Virus record (IMG/VR): IMGVR_UViG_3300049595_000074
Location: 1 to 21,696 of that record
Source: a virus
DNA: 21,696 bases
Strand: one strand, 5' to 3'
Shown here: positions 350 through 4,779 of the stretch, piece after piece
Layout: each line of letters starts with the position of its first letter
How positions within the stretch are numbered: position 1 is the stretch's first letter
The notes under the pieces: model-generated
What the model saw: the letters and a program-made list of their open reading frames with translations, nothing else
Database searches by the model: none
Told to the model about the DNA's origin: nothing
Program-made: the position numbers and the translations under genes

Positions 350-645
350 TGGCAGCGGCTTGGACTAAGAAGGCTGGCAAGAATGCCAAGGGCGGTCTTA
401 ATGAGAAAGGCCGTAAGTCTTACGAGGCTGAGAATCCCGGCTCTGACCTAAAGGCTCCAGTCAAGTCAGGAGACAATCCTAGAAGGGCTAGTTTCCTAGC
501 TCGTATGGGCAATATGCCCGGTGCGGAGTATAAAAATGGTGAACCTACGCGCCTACTGCTATCCCTGAAGGCATGGGGTGCTAGCAGTAAGGCAGATGCT
601 AAGAAGAAAGCAGCAGCTATTTCCGCTAGAAATAAGAAAAAGTAA
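349..645 (+). CDS. Small basic phage protein, DUF6321-like
   Basis: A 98-residue Lys/Arg/Ala-rich protein. The pattern [19 protein letters not shown] near the N-terminus, [14 protein letters not shown] in the middle, and a Lys-rich tail ending in SARNKKK matches what I remember of the DUF6321 family, which is frequent in phage genomes and has no known function. Its strong positive charge would suit nucleic acid binding, but that is inference. The start ATG overlaps the upstream stop by one base (TAATG) and its own stop overlaps the next start in the same way, so it sits in a tightly coupled operon. No membrane segment or signal peptide is seen. Confidence 0.8.
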
Positions 646-1154
646 TGAAGCATACCTACGGGGTTAAGAACATTCACGTTAGGGAGTGGGGAGAAGGCAC
701 TGATGTATTAATCGGTGCTTTTTGTTCTATTGCGGACAATGTTGAGATATTCCTTGGCGGTAATCATAGAACAGACTGGGTAACTACTTATCCGTTTGGT
801 CACATCAATAAAGAGGCATTCCCTTGGCATGGCAGAGGACATCCAGCGACTAAGGGCAATGTGGTTATTGGGAACGATGTCTGGATAGGATCAGGCGTTA
901 CGATATTCTCAGGCGTTACTATTGGGGATGGTGCTGTTATATCAGCTAAGTCTGTTGTGGTTAAGGATGTGCCTCCATACTCGATTGTTGGTGGGAATCC
1001 TGCCAAAGTAGTGAAGTTGCGGTTTACTGAAGACCAGATAAACAGGCTTTTAAAAAACCCTTGGTGGGATCTACCTGAGAGCCGTATCAATGAGTTACTC
1101 CCATTGTTGTGTTCAAGTAACGTAGAGGATTTAATTGCAGCCATTAACGCTTAA
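645..1154 (+). CDS. Hexapeptide-repeat acetyltransferase (CatB/VatD-like)
   Basis: A 169-residue left-handed beta-helix acyltransferase of the xenobiotic acetyltransferase type. The N-terminal part has short hexapeptide coils ([12 protein letters not shown], 22-33), then [14 protein letters not shown] at 38-51, where His41 fits the catalytic histidine loop of CatB/VatD-like enzymes. A second run of coils covers about 73-118 ([16 protein letters not shown], then [10 protein letters not shown]), ending in the usual [10 protein letters not shown]. The helical C-terminus (about 128-168) resembles the family tail. Family members transfer acetyl from acetyl-CoA to a hydroxyl, often on sugars or small molecules. 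With a methyltransferase and a glycosyltransferase next in line, acetylation of a glycan is more likely than drug resistance, but the substrate is unknown. It overlaps the next gene by 20 nt. Confidence 0.85.
1124..1137 (+). promoter_or_regulatory. RBS and TTG start of the methyltransferase gene
   Basis: AGAGGA at 1124-1129 lies five bases before a TTG at 1135. An in-frame TAA at 1132-1134 directly precedes the TTG, and the conserved SAM motif LNLGSG follows only a few codons later with no ATG in between. TTG is therefore the only plausible start. Confidence 0.75.
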
Positions 1155-1665
1155 TTTAGGCTCCGGTAAAGACTGGAGAGAGGATTGTCTAAACTCAGAC
1201 ATACAGGCTAGGGTTAAACCTGACTGGGTATGCGACATATCTAAGGTTCAATGGGGTGAGCTAGTAGATACCCGGTTCGGACAGATCAAGATTAAGCCTG
1301 AGATGTTTGAAAAAATCGTCGCAAATGACGTTTTAGAGCATATTCCTGATTTAATTAGTGCCATGAGGAACTGCCGAGACTTACTTAAAGTCGGTGGTGA
1401 GTTCGTTATATCTGTACCTTATGAGCTAAGTCTAGGTGCATGGCAAGATCCTACGCACGTACGTGCTTTTAATGAGAATAGCTGGCTGTACTATACCGAG
1501 TGGTGCTGGTATTTAGGCTGGGAGTCTGGCTTTAGGTTGGCAGAGCTTCAGTTTAAGCTGTCTGAATTAGGCTCAGAAATGTCTAAGACAGCCGTTTCTG
1601 ATGAGGAAATCCTAAGAACTCCACGAGCTGTAGACTCAATGAAGGTGACATTGTGCAAGCTATAG
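1135..1665 (+). CDS. Class I SAM-dependent methyltransferase
   Basis: A 176-residue protein starting at TTG. It shows the class I fold in order: motif [10 protein letters not shown] (6-14), an acidic residue after the second strand (D22), NDVLEHIPD (64-72) as the post-motif strand and active-site region, and [14 protein letters not shown] (83-96) as the strand before the late catalytic part. DPTHVRAFN at 105-113 is typical of Methyltransf_11-like enzymes in glycan and small-molecule clusters. It lacks a DNA methylase (N/D)PPY motif, so it is unlikely to modify DNA bases. It begins inside the acetyltransferase gene and ends inside the glycosyltransferase gene (13-nt overlap), so the three are probably translated together. 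O-methylation of a sugar is the simplest reading; the substrate is inferred from neighbours only. Confidence 0.82.
1641..1655 (+). promoter_or_regulatory. RBS and GTG start of the first glycosyltransferase
   Basis: GAAGGTG at 1641-1647 precedes a GTG start at 1653 by five bases. This supports GTG over any later codon and makes a 13-nt overlap with the methyltransferase gene. Confidence 0.65.
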
Positions 1666-2360
1666 TTATCTGTACGGTAAAGAATCCCGGCGTAACGATA
1701 TTGCTTGAAAGCATTAGAGTTTATGCGCCTACGATGCCGGTATACCTATTTGGTAACAGCTTAGATCTTTGGCACAAGGCTAAGAGTATCTTGCCTAACT
1801 TGGTCTGGAGGCCGAATCAGGCTGATAACTTTGGCGATGCTTACAATACGGCAATAGATTATGCCTTTGAGCATGGGCGTTATAAATCAGTAATTGTGTC
1901 TAACGATGACGTTGTTATAACACCTAGTGCCATAGATGTAATGAAGAATGATTCGGAAATTCTGGAATCAAACGGCGTAAATGTCGGATTCTTGGGTGCT
2001 AGATCGGACTATGTGTTACCAGACCAGAACATTAGATTCCCTGTAGAGGAAGATGAACGAGTCGGATTAAAGTGGGAAAGCGAGTTCTACATTAAGCCCA
2101 CAGGAGTCATAGCACCAATATTTGCTACCATTAGCAAGAAGGCATGGGATGTAGCTAAGTTCCCTAGCACGAATTGGTATTCCGATAATATAATATGCCA
2201 TGACCTGCAAAAAGCAGGATTTGAGCATTTCGTATCAAGGGCTTATGTTCATCACGCAGGAAGCCAGACAGTAGGAACAGACTTTGAGAAATGCCATGAG
2301 GAACCACGAGAGTGGATAAAGGCTAACAGACCGGACGTATACGAGGTATTTTATGGCTGA
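1653..2360 (+). CDS. GT-A (family 2-like) glycosyltransferase
   Basis: A 235-residue protein read from GTG. The N-terminus ([11 protein letters not shown], then PVYLFGNS) has the strand-loop pattern of a nucleotide-sugar-binding Rossmann half. SNDDVVITP at 83-91 is the DxD-like metal and nucleotide-sugar site after a hydrophobic strand. SDN at 177-179 with HDLQKAGF at 183-190 corresponds to the acceptor-side acidic motif, and HHAGSQT at 200-206 is the late His motif seen in many family 2 enzymes. The fold looks complete and no membrane anchor is visible, so it should be soluble. It overlaps the next gene by 8 nt. With the adjacent acetyl- and methyltransferases it forms a small sugar-decoration cassette that may act on host surface polysaccharide or on virion proteins. 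The donor and acceptor cannot be deduced. Confidence 0.8.
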   Translation: MQAIVICTVKNPGVTILLESIRVYAPTMPVYLFGNSLDLWHKAKSILPNLVWRPNQADNFGDAYNTAIDYAFEHGRYKSVIVSNDDVVITPSAIDVMKNDSEILESNGVNVGFLGARSDYVLPDQNIRFPVEEDERVGLKWESEFYIKPTGVIAPIFATISKKAWDVAKFPSTNWYSDNIICHDLQKAGFEHFVSRAYVHHAGSQTVGTDFEKCHEEPREWIKANRPDVYEVFYG

Positions 2361-3792
2361 CATAAGACCAACACCAGTTTCAAATTACCCGGCTTATTAT
2401 GGGGCTGGATTGCTTAGTGGTCTTAATGAGGCCGTAAGTAAGCCGTTTGGCTATGAGAATGATCCTGTCCGAGCATTGACTAACTTGCTTGGAATTCCCT
2501 CCTTTGTAAAGACGCTAGAAAATACTGCTTACGGTATGCCAAACACCCGTGGCGCTGGTATGGCTACGCAATTACGTCCAGAAGCTAAAGAAACAGTGGG
2601 TGCTCTTTTGCCAATGGCTCCCGGCGCTGCAAGACTTGCGGCTCGTGGCGCTGTTGCTGGCGGTAAATATATTGCTCCTCAAGTTGGCGGTTTGCTTGAT
2701 GATTATGCTGCAAAAACAGGTTTGCAGATGTATGTATATAGGCCGACAAGCCCATCTAATCCAGATCCGTTAGTAGGAACTCAATTTAAACGCGAAGATA
2801 TTGGTGGATTAGTTAATAAAACAATTAACGACTTATCAAACAAACAAGGTGCAAGTCTTTTATTTATGCCTTGGGATAATTCAAGTAGAAATATGAAAAT
2901 TACTCAGGTGTCTGGAGTAGATATTCCGCACGTTATTACTCATGGAGGCCAAAATTATATTTTAGATACTGAACATATTAAAAAGGGTATTGGTGGAGCT
3001 TCTGGGAAAACTGTTGCAGAAAAAATTGTTACAAGAGATGCTATTGCTAGAAAAGAAAATTTAAAGGCTGGTGGAACTGGTGAGGTAATTTCAACTCCAA
3101 TAACAATGGCACAATATTCAGAAAATTATTCTGTACAGCCAACGCAAGTTTTATTAGGTTTAATTGATAGGAATCCGAATAGCCCACAAATTATTCCTAA
3201 ACTTAATGAAAGAATACAAAATACTCCTAAATTTGTTGGTACAGGAGAAAAACGGCGAGTAACGTATCCATTTAAAGATTTTGCTGGAGTAGAAACAGAA
3301 TTAGGAAGATTGCAATTATTTCAGAATAGTGCGGCTGGGGGAGATTTGAGAAAAGCATTTGTTGCTAATGCTTATGGTAAAAGTAGGAAAAAAGGTGATA
3401 TAAATTTTCAAAAAGAATTTGGATTTAATGCAGAAGATATAGAAAATGCAATTGGTGATCCTGCTTTGGCTGGACTGCCAAGGGGTTATGGTGGTAATGC
3501 ATTCGTATCTTCAGGTAAAGAAGGAATAATTTTAAAACCTTCTAAAAATGCAACATATAATACAGATCTTACCAATATGGAATATTTGGGTGGATTAGGA
3601 TATAGCGCACCTGTTGAAATATTTATGGGGCCACAATATACAAAATTAGCAGCAGAGCAAATGGGTAAAGTTGGCGATTTGAGATCGCATACGATTGGCG
3701 CTATTGAAAAACGAAAAGCAGGGGTATCAACAATGATTGATGATGCAATGCTAAGAAGACTTGAAGATTATAAGAAAGGCTTACTCGATTAA
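2353..3792 (+). CDS. Composite phage protein with AT-rich polyvalent-type C-terminal module
   Basis: A 479-residue protein in two parts. Residues 1 to about 130 have the base composition of the neighbouring genes and an Ala/Gly-rich helical segment (GALLPMAPGAARLAARGA at about 82-99), the style of N-termini in phage ejection proteins. From about residue 135 to the end the DNA turns clearly AT-rich and the protein becomes an alpha/beta module with ASLLFMPWDNSSRNMKI (about 166-182), GDLRKAFVANAYGK and GALEKRK-like text (AIEKRKAGVS) near the end. I recall comparable wording within giant phage 'polyvalent' (PLxRFG-type) proteins, here as a stand-alone gene; that recall is unverified. The enzymatic role, if any, is unknown. 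It is convergent with the small leftward gene and overlaps its 3' end by 12 nt. Confidence 0.7.
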   Translation: MADIRPTPVSNYPAYYGAGLLSGLNEAVSKPFGYENDPVRALTNLLGIPSFVKTLENTAYGMPNTRGAGMATQLRPEAKETVGALLPMAPGAARLAARGAVAGGKYIAPQVGGLLDDYAAKTGLQMYVYRPTSPSNPDPLVGTQFKREDIGGLVNKTINDLSNKQGASLLFMPWDNSSRNMKITQVSGVDIPHVITHGGQNYILDTEHIKKGIGGASGKTVAEKIVTRDAIARKENLKAGGTGEVISTPITMAQYSENYSVQPTQVLLGLIDRNPNSPQIIPKLNERIQNTPKFVGTGEKRRVTYPFKDFAGVETELGRLQLFQNSAAGGDLRKAFVANAYGKSRKKGDINFQKEFGFNAEDIENAIGDPALAGLPRGYGGNAFVSSGKEGIILKPSKNATYNTDLTNMEYLGGLGYSAPVEIFMGPQYTKLAAEQMGKVGDLRSHTIGAIEKRKAGVSTMIDDAMLRRLEDYKKGLLD

Positions 3793-3939
3793 GTTATTAG
3801 CATCATCAATATGAATTTGTAATAACATTTTGACATGTTCTAAAAAGTTAATAAAGTCATCTTGATTAGATTTTAAAAGCTCATCATCTAAAGTAAATGT
3901 AATACCTTGTGTTGGCGTTGATTCGATAGTGATTTTCAT
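3781..3939 (-). CDS. Small acidic protein, the only leftward gene (moron-like)
   Basis: A 52-residue protein, MKITIESTPTQG at the N-terminus and DDANNLIE at the C-terminus, acidic and without a recognised domain. The start at 3939 is chosen over an in-frame ATG ten codons upstream because it is preceded by a textbook ribosome binding site (TTGGAGGAAC) at the right distance. A perfect TATAAT lies just upstream on the same strand. It is the only gene opposing the long rightward operon and sits in AT-rich DNA between the composite protein and the packaging genes. Independent promoter, opposite strand and distinct composition are the hallmarks of a moron, an accessory gene that may be expressed outside the lytic programme. 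Function unknown. I am confident that it is a real gene. Confidence 0.75.
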   Translation of the reverse strand: MKITIESTPTQGITFTLDDELLKSNQDDFINFLEHVKMLLQIHIDDANNLIE

Positions 3940-3942
3940 AGT

Positions 3943-3949
3943 TCCTCCA
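3943..3949 (-). promoter_or_regulatory. Strong RBS deciding the start of the leftward gene
   Basis: On the minus strand TGGAGGA (complement of 3943-3949) stands three to four bases before the ATG whose first base is 3939. It is close to the full anti-Shine-Dalgarno complement and is among the strongest sites in the window. Confidence 0.75.
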
Positions 3950-3960
3950 AGTGAAATATT

Positions 3961-3988
3961 ATTATACATGAGTATTAATTGTACGCAA
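3961..3988 (-). promoter_or_regulatory. Sigma-70-like promoter of the leftward gene
   Basis: On the minus strand a perfect TATAAT (complement of 3961-3966) is preceded by TTGCGT (complement of 3983-3988) at a 16-base spacing; TTGTTG at 19 bases is an alternative -35. Transcription would begin only about ten bases before the ribosome binding site, giving a short leader. The -10 box is strong, the -35 box weak. Confidence 0.55.
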
Positions 3989-3991
3989 CAA

Positions 3992-4002
3992 GCTTAGTAA
4001 GC
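3992..4002. repeat. Short palindrome next to the leftward promoter
   Basis: GCTTA-G-TAAGC is a perfect inverted repeat with a one-base centre, placed just upstream of the -35 region of the leftward promoter and before the rightward TerS-like gene. It could be an operator half-site pair, but five-base arms can occur by chance. Confidence 0.3.
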
Positions 4003-4027
4003 ATGACATCCAAAGGATAATGCAATT

Positions 4028-4336
4028 ATGGAAACATCAGAAGTTAAAGAAACTCAAAGTAACTGGAAAGTAGGAGACGGTACTGCTGGGCCGGGTAGAC
4101 CTAAAGGATCAGCTAATAAGTCCACTACTATCGTAAGAGAGGCTATAGCTAACCTACTAGAGCGCAATGCTCCTAACATGGATAGATGGCTTAATGAGGT
4201 GGCTGATAAAGATCCTCATAAGGCATTGGACATTATCCAGAAGCTCTCTGAGTACCATATCCCTAAGCTGGCTAGGACTGAGGTCACAGGACTTGATGGC
4301 GCTCCTCAGCAGCACGTGGTTACATGGCAGAAGTAA
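4028..4336 (+). CDS. Terminase small subunit-like DNA-binding protein
   Basis: A 102-residue protein directly ahead of the cupin and TerL genes. The segment GPGRPKGSANKSTT at 21-34 is an AT-hook-like, basic stretch as found in DUF5681-type proteins and in many small terminase subunits of this phage group. The rest (IVREAIANLLERNAPNM, then KALDIIQKLSEYHIPKL) is helical, as expected for an oligomeric DNA-recognition subunit. TerS binds the packaging site and hands the genome to TerL. Position and composition support this, but the identity is inferred because TerS proteins diverge quickly. The ATG follows AAAGGATAATGCAATT, a moderate ribosome binding site. Its TAA stop lies inside the first codons of the next gene. 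Confidence 0.65.
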   Translation: METSEVKETQSNWKVGDGTAGPGRPKGSANKSTTIVREAIANLLERNAPNMDRWLNEVADKDPHKALDIIQKLSEYHIPKLARTEVTGLDGAPQQHVVTWQK

Positions 4337-4337
4337 T
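4324..4337 (+). repeat. Left copy of a 14-nt repeat flanking the cupin gene
   Basis: ATGGCAGAAGTAAT here matches ATGGCAGAGGTAAT at 4784-4797 in 13 of 14 bases, exactly 460 bases apart. This copy holds both the TerS-like stop codon and the cupin start. Confidence 0.7.
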
Positions 4338-4779
4338 GCAATTTGACGATCTTGAGAACTTCAAGAACTGGTGGCTAGGCTCAAGACCTATTAACACACC
4401 AGACTTAAATGCCTTGACCTATGTTGCTGAGACGCATGGAGTTGTCTTATATAGGCAAGACTGCTATCAAGTTGAGATGTTTCTGGTAAAGCCTAACTCA
4501 GAGATAGATCCTCACATCCACCCTAATGTTGATTCTTTTGAGGTCTACATTGGCGGTGACATTAACTTTATGTGCAATGGTGAGTGGTTTGACCAGAATC
4601 TCATAGGCAATTCTATTCGCGTTTATCCTAATAGCTGGCATGGCGGTAAGTTTGGTGAACGTGGCGGATGTTTCTTATCGATACAAAAGTGGCTCAATAA
4701 TGTAGAGCCTAAGTTTGTTGGGGATGACTGGGTAGATACTAAGAATACTGGTTCTTACAAAGAAAACAGGGAGTCATAG
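4324..4779 (+). CDS. Cupin-like metal-binding protein inserted in the terminase module
   Basis: A 151-residue protein with a cupin-type metal site: DPHIHPNVDSFEVYIGGDI at 62-80 gives H64, H66 and E73, and VYPNSWHGG at 100-108 gives H106 of the second motif. Small cupins bind a divalent metal and act as sugar epimerases, dioxygenases, isomerases or simple binding proteins; none can be chosen here. It has no known role in packaging. The first ATG (4324) overlaps the TerS-like gene by 13 nt. A second in-frame ATG at 4336 would make a 1-nt TAATG junction like several others in this genome, so the start is uncertain by four codons. The first bases repeat at the start of TerL, suggesting insertion between TerS and TerL. 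Confidence 0.75.
   Translation: MAEVMQFDDLENFKNWWLGSRPINTPDLNALTYVAETHGVVLYRQDCYQVEMFLVKPNSEIDPHIHPNVDSFEVYIGGDINFMCNGEWFDQNLIGNSIRVYPNSWHGGKFGERGGCFLSIQKWLNNVEPKFVGDDWVDTKNTGSYKENRES

What the first reader, a model, noticed from the sequence alone, without database searches (positions are those of the whole stretch)
3781..4002. Leftward moron-like gene with its own promoter
A 52-residue ORF opposes an otherwise all-rightward late operon. It has a perfect TATAAT, a near-consensus ribosome binding site, a palindrome beside the -35 region and AT-rich DNA. Its 3' end overlaps the convergent gene by 12 nt, so its transcript would be antisense to that gene. Such genes often alter the host or block other phages.
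Basis: partly seen in the sequence, partly recalled or inferred. Interest (0 to 1): 0.6.

Follow-up and report, generated by a model that had tools for sequence, protein, structure and literature searches.

The report
Phage toxin-like gene with back-to-front partner
A tiny backward-facing phage gene is real and protein-coding, and it almost always travels with the end of the large gene it faces, most likely as the antidote to a toxin-like phage protein that no database describes.

Summary
The 52-codon leftward ORF (3939-3781) is a real, selected gene. It is not a stand-alone moron. It is one half of a two-gene cassette with the convergent 479-aa gene (2353-3792).

A homologue of the small gene lies tail-to-tail with the C-terminal domain (CTD) of that gene in 68 of 74 informative loci. 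The overlap is usually 12 nt. All 32 loci found by searching with the small protein have the CTD. None of the sister phages carrying other proteins in the slot has it. Small-gene dN/dS is about 0.12. CTD plus small gene were exchanged as one nearly identical block between otherwise diverged phages, with different N-termini.

In a 94-97% identical sister phage, the CTD is replaced by a remote homologue (CTD-B). The small gene is replaced by an unrelated leftward gene behind the same promoter. CTD-B carries its own partner in 65 of 76 loci.

The small proteins are acidic and the CTDs basic. The slot's other proteins carry ADP-ribosyltransferase or acetyltransferase domains. Best explanation: a polymorphic phage effector with a cognate immunity protein, encoded convergently under its own promoter, as for pore-forming colicins. 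Toxicity and neutralisation are inferred. Neither family matches Pfam, PHROGs, NCBIfam or PDB.

The parts
3781..3939 (-). small gene 'small-A', 52 aa, pI 4.3; proposed immunity/antitoxin protein
   Evidence: ORF; 68 homologous loci; dN/dS median 0.12, 0.10 for window versus L006; pI
3944..3948 (-). ribosome binding site GGAGG
   Evidence: sequence; GGAGG or a similar AG-rich site upstream of many relatives' small genes
3961..3966 (-). -10 hexamer TATAAT
   Evidence: conserved in relatives with a diverged spacer
3983..3988 (-). -35-like hexamer TTGCGT, 16-nt spacer (weak)
2353..3792 (+). convergent gene, 479 aa: exchangeable N-terminal segment plus CTD-A; proposed effector/toxin
   Evidence: ORF; N-terminus swapped in relatives; no Pfam, PHROGs, NCBIfam or PDB family
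2623..3789 (+). CTD-A (about residues 91-479), pI 9.3, the part that travels with small-A
3781..3792 (.). 12-nt tail-to-tail overlap of the two genes; 12 nt in 38 of 68 loci
2662..3975 (.). exchanged cassette: 98-100% identical to L004/L005 over most of its length while flanks are 74-78% identical; covers CTD-A, small-A and the promoter
3937..4027 (.). promoter/RBS region kept (about 97%) in sister L024 although both CTD and small gene differ; the matching block begins at the small gene's start codon
1653..2360 (+). left flank of the polymorphic slot (glycosyltransferase-like gene)
4028..4336 (+). right flank of the slot: gene before the terminase large subunit, probable small terminase

Best explanation
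The small gene encodes a cognate immunity (antitoxin) protein for the C-terminal domain of the facing 479-aa phage effector. The effector gene is read rightward with the late genes. The immunity gene is read leftward from its own sigma-70-type promoter, or in other phages from a leftward (probably early) operon, so the acidic immunity protein is present before or independently of the late-made basic effector. It would bind and silence the CTD so that the infected cell, and hence the phage's own replication, survives until virions are made. The free effector would then act in the next cell or on competitors. Shown: reality, protein-level selection, strict linkage to the CTD rather than the N-terminus, exchange as a unit, paired replacement by a second CTD/partner pair, and promoter conservation. 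Inferred: toxicity of the CTD, direct binding, timing, and delivery in the virion.
For: Linkage: small-A is present in 68 of 74 informative CTD-A loci. All 32 loci fetched with small proteins carry CTD-A convergently. In the same slot of sister phages, the leftward gene is present with CTD-A/B (11 of 11, window included; some near-identical) and absent with other proteins (0 of 31), Fisher p 2e-10. It tracks the CTD, not the N-terminus: the same CTD plus small gene occurs with different N-termini (L002-L006), and the window's N-terminus with another CTD (L036) lacks it. Exchange as a block with L004/L005. Natural paired swap in L024 with the promoter kept. CTD-B is a remote homologue of CTD-A (hhalign E 9e-6, probability 83) and has an unrelated partner (hhalign probability 0.2) in 65 of 76 loci, dN/dS 0.14. 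A third unrelated leftward 77-aa gene faces a remote CTD homologue in cultured Roseobacter phage CRP-902 (gp71/gp72). Charge: small -7 against CTD-A +9; small-B -3 against CTD-B +8. Sister slot proteins carry ART-PolyVal, GNAT or LPD23 domains. In L129, L134, L136 and L145 the small gene instead ends a leftward operon facing the late operon. Broken CTD with an intact small gene is seen in L106/L108 (same stop in two samples) and L164; the converse was not seen.
Against: No toxicity, binding or expression data. The CTD has no recognisable catalytic family, and its AlphaFold model failed (pLDDT 33). Six CTD-A loci (about four lineages) and the more divergent CTD-B relatives lack the adjacent partner. 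A dedicated chaperone or cofactor would show much of the same linkage. A strictly lytic phage has less obvious need of immunity than a lysogen. Virion packaging of the effector is untested.
Confidence: 0.6

Rival explanations
1. The small protein is a dedicated chaperone, loading factor or cofactor of the CTD (keeps it soluble, helps load it into virions), not an antitoxin.
For: Strict CTD linkage and opposite charges fit equally well.
Against: A loading factor should be made together with its client, in the late operon; the gene is consistently on the opposite strand, under its own promoter or in another operon. Homologous CTDs have unrelated partners, which is more usual for immunity proteins. 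Loading signals are commonly N-terminal, but linkage is to the CTD.
Confidence: 0.22
2. A stand-alone moron or host-takeover peptide (superinfection exclusion, host modification) that merely sits there.
Against: It never occurred without CTD-A in 32 small-first loci and is absent from all other slots. It is exchanged with the CTD.
Confidence: 0.06
3. A convergent antisense regulator: leftward transcription or RNA limits expression of the 479-aa gene; the peptide is secondary.
For: Tail-to-tail overlap in nearly all loci.
Against: dN/dS about 0.12 with changes mostly at third positions (1111 against 428 and 262). The overlap varies from 9 to 50 nt. Unrelated proteins behind one promoter.
Confidence: 0.05
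4. The small protein is a transcriptional regulator of the cassette or of the phage.
For: Small acidic helical protein beside its own promoter.
Against: Unrelated small-A and small-B proteins sit behind essentially the same promoter in sister phages, so neither is likely to be a specific autoregulator of it. No DNA-binding family match.
Confidence: 0.07

Closest known systems
Pore-forming (ionophoric) colicin immunity genes
   Same: The immunity gene lies downstream of the toxin gene on the opposite strand with its own promoter (PMC9517006; PMC6668396).
   Different: Those immunity proteins are larger and act at the membrane (own knowledge; Czi of colicin Z is 151 aa). Here it is a 52-aa acidic protein without an obvious membrane segment, in a phage late operon, facing a basic and not overall hydrophobic CTD (GRAVY -0.40). 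No sequence relation shown.
MuF polymorphic toxins of temperate phages (Jamet et al. 2017, PMC5576092)
   Same: Phage packaging module, variable C-terminal domains, small partner ORF tied to the toxin domain.
   Different: No MuF domain detected. The slot is beside the terminase genes rather than directly after the portal gene. The partner is convergent rather than a following ORF. No lysogeny gene was noticed in the window.
Polyvalent proteins of phages and conjugative elements (Iyer et al. 2017, PMC5512222)
   Same: Sister proteins in the same slot carry ART-PolyVal, GNAT or LPD23 domains.
   Different: This protein matches no such domain at a meaningful score. A search of the paper's text for 'convergent', 'antisense' and 'neutraliz' found none.
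Type II toxin-antitoxin pairs
   Same: Small acidic partner of a basic protein, linked loci.
   Different: Opposite strands, no shared operon, large multi-part putative toxin, no known family.

Membership tests
Polymorphic toxin / immunity systems (general) | Interchangeable N-termini on a conserved C-terminal domain, and different CTDs on one N-terminus | tested here: met
   Same CTD-A with several N-termini; the window's N-terminus with another CTD in L036
Polymorphic toxin / immunity systems (general) | Small partner gene linked to the CTD type | tested here: met
   68 of 74 and 65 of 76 loci; 0 of 31 slots with other CTDs
Polymorphic toxin / immunity systems (general) | CTD toxic, partner neutralises it | not testable with these tools
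   needs expression experiments
MuF polymorphic toxins | N-terminal MuF domain (PF04233/PF06152 or MuF3/4) | tested here: not met
   No Pfam match in this protein or the 34 slot proteins scanned; MuF3/4 profiles were not available
MuF polymorphic toxins | Gene immediately downstream of the portal gene | tested here: not met
   Lies upstream of the probable small terminase gene
Polyvalent proteins | Recognisable polyvalent domains (ART-PolyVal, LPDs and others) | tested here: not met
   None in this protein; one relative has a marginal LPD38 match, E 0.096. Present in sister slot proteins
Opposite-strand colicin immunity | Immunity gene downstream, convergent, own promoter | tested here: met
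   promoter by conservation only
Opposite-strand colicin immunity | Homology to colicin immunity proteins | tested here: not met
   No Pfam, PHROGs or PDB match
Type II toxin-antitoxin | Two genes in one operon | tested here: not met
   Opposite strands
Antisense / type I antitoxin RNA | Partner acts as RNA, no protein constraint | tested here: not met
   dN/dS median 0.12
Moron | Independent transcription unit with promoter and terminator, unrelated to its neighbours | tested here: not met
   No terminator found; near-obligate link to the neighbouring CTD

The most novel reading that the evidence does not exclude
A widespread class of effectors in aquatic phages, each paired with a convergently encoded immunity protein whose sequence is replaced together with the effector's C-terminal domain behind a retained promoter. 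This would amount to colicin-like toxin/immunity warfare carried in phage particles and fought between co-infecting phages or against the host.
Probability: 0.35. Interest if true: 0.8.

Novelty: new variant of a known kind. Interest (0 to 1): 0.62.

Why it matters
Phage effectors with exchangeable C-terminal domains are known mainly from temperate phages and by prediction. Here at least two related domains, and probably a third, each have their own convergent small partner, in aquatic phages. If confirmed, this gives a compact toxin/antidote pair for study, explains a class of 'orphan' leftward genes in late operons, and suggests that phages without evident lysogeny also protect the cell they are exploiting from their own weapons. 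A cultured phage (CRP-902) makes the idea directly testable.

Tried and rejected
Stand-alone moron: rejected by near-obligate linkage. Antisense RNA: rejected by dN/dS. Small protein as autoregulator of its promoter: disfavoured by unrelated proteins behind one promoter. The weak Pfam hit of the small protein to MGMT_N (E 0.016, below cut-off) was taken as chance, as were a PADLOC hit PDC-S05 in one member (E 0.02) and PDB hits of the CTD-B profile to dehydroquinase (E 0.03). The AlphaFold model of the 479-aa protein failed (pLDDT 33, 7 sequences), so no fold search was made; the small protein gave one confident long helix (26-51, mean pLDDT 74), too little for a meaningful fold search. A profile search with the whole small family failed for lack of conserved stretches, so two subfamilies were used. 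CTD-A as in the window is absent from the phage and plasmid record collections; only remote homologues were found. In phage C72C1 the gene after the remote homologue runs rightward and is a 64-aa peptide, not clearly a partner.

Full report
What was checked. The window is a 21.7-kb linear viral fragment. Its terminase is closest to Methylophilales phage Venkman (64%) and to an uncultured podovirus, then to pelagiphages. The ORF at 3939-3781 is as described: 52 aa, GGAGG site, TATAAT at 3966-3961, 12-nt overlap with the rightward gene 2353-3792. By consensus alone the promoter is unremarkable: the sigma-70 scan did not list it, and TATAAT is no commoner than chance. By conservation it is convincing: TTGCGT, 16 nt, TATAAT is kept in relatives whose spacer differs.

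It is a protein gene. Homologues lie at the same place, diverged to about 20-35% identity. Over 63 pairs the median dN/dS is 0.12, with window versus L006 at 0.10. Differences by codon position are 428, 262 and 1111.

It belongs to its neighbour. The region between the glycosyltransferase-like gene and the probable small terminase is a variable slot. In about 40 sister phages it holds a rightward protein built from a limited set of N-termini and many C-termini. Eight of 34 slot proteins scanned carry ART-PolyVal; others carry GNAT acetyltransferase or LPD23 domains. The leftward gene is present in the slot only with two C-terminal types: 11 of 11 (window included; some of these are near-identical) against 0 of 31, Fisher p 2e-10. 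Searching with the CTD profile brought 74 viral loci and one bacterial metagenome-assembled genome. Of these 75, one ends too early to tell, 68 have the small gene and 6 do not. Searching the other way, all 32 loci found with small proteins have CTD-A facing them.

It moves with the CTD. Window and L004/L005 share a 98-100% identical block from about 2690 to 3975, covering CTD-A, small-A and the promoter. The left neighbour gene is 78% identical, the N-terminal part about 50% and the terminase 74%. The N-termini differ while the CTD is nearly the same. Conversely L036 has the window's N-terminus with another CTD and no leftward gene.

A natural paired swap. Sister L024 is 96.5% identical to the left of the slot, 97% over the promoter and probable small terminase, and 94% in the terminase and beyond. 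Between these it carries CTD-B and a different 66-aa leftward gene. The right-hand matching block begins at the small gene's start codon. CTD-B is a remote homologue of CTD-A (hhalign E 9e-6, 258 columns), yet the two small families show no relation. CTD-B has its partner in 65 of 76 loci, overlapping by 7-35 nt, dN/dS 0.14; only more divergent relatives (54% identity or less) lack it. In cultured Roseobacter phage CRP-902, a remote CTD homologue (gp72) faces a third, unrelated, leftward 77-aa gene (gp71) in an otherwise rightward stretch. That phage is described as strictly lytic (PMC10149686).

How it probably works. A small acidic protein (pI 4.3) is tied to a basic CTD (pI 9.3) and made from a separate promoter. 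In L129, L134, L136 and L145 the same small family instead ends a leftward operon that meets the late operon. This suggests the small protein is needed before, or independently of, the late-made CTD protein. That is what an immunity protein needs, and it is the layout of ionophoric colicins. CTD genes broken while the small gene is intact occur in L106/L108 (the same stop in two samples) and L164. No case of an intact CTD beside a broken small gene was seen, although six loci have no small gene at all. These numbers are small. Toxicity, binding, timing and packaging are inferred, not shown. The main rival is a dedicated chaperone or cofactor.

Comparison with the known. The CTDs and small proteins match no meaningful Pfam, PHROGs, NCBIfam, PADLOC or PDB entry (not every family was run against every library). 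In kind it resembles polymorphic toxin/immunity modules. It lacks the MuF domain and portal-adjacent position of MuF toxins and the recognised domains of polyvalent proteins. I therefore call it a new variant of a known kind, by analogy of layout and linkage, not by membership in a named family.

Noticed in passing
window 1653-4028 and the same slot in L007-L086: A hypervariable slot between a glycosyltransferase-like gene and the terminase genes, holding proteins with shared N-termini and varied C-termini (ADP-ribosyltransferase, acetyltransferase, ParB-like and unknown).
   Followed up: partly
window 4324-4779 and L038:1982-2443: A second variable slot between the probable small terminase and the terminase large subunit: a 151-aa cupin-like gene here (no Pfam match), HNH-like or methylase-like genes in sister phages, or nothing. 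L038 has the same gene at 94% identity.
   Followed up: no
L106:2501-3937 and L108:2501-3937: The same in-frame stop at residue 244 of the CTD protein in two separate metagenome contigs, with an intact small gene.
   Followed up: partly
L119, L122, L143, L163: CTD-A without an adjacent small partner, in other gene contexts (for example just before a portal-like gene in L119); whether the partner is elsewhere in the genome was not checked.
   Followed up: partly
L278:2644-4190 (Roseobacter phage CRP-902 gp72/gp71): Remote CTD homologue facing a single leftward gene in a cultured phage; both annotated as hypothetical.
   Followed up: partly
window 645-1154 and 1135-1665: Hexapeptide-repeat acetyltransferase and methyltransferase genes upstream of the slot, perhaps surface or sugar modification genes.
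   Followed up: no
L171 (contig JAURGE010000048.1, Alphaproteobacteria MAG): The only CTD-A plus small-A locus found in the bacterial genome collection, possibly a co-binned phage contig.
   Followed up: no
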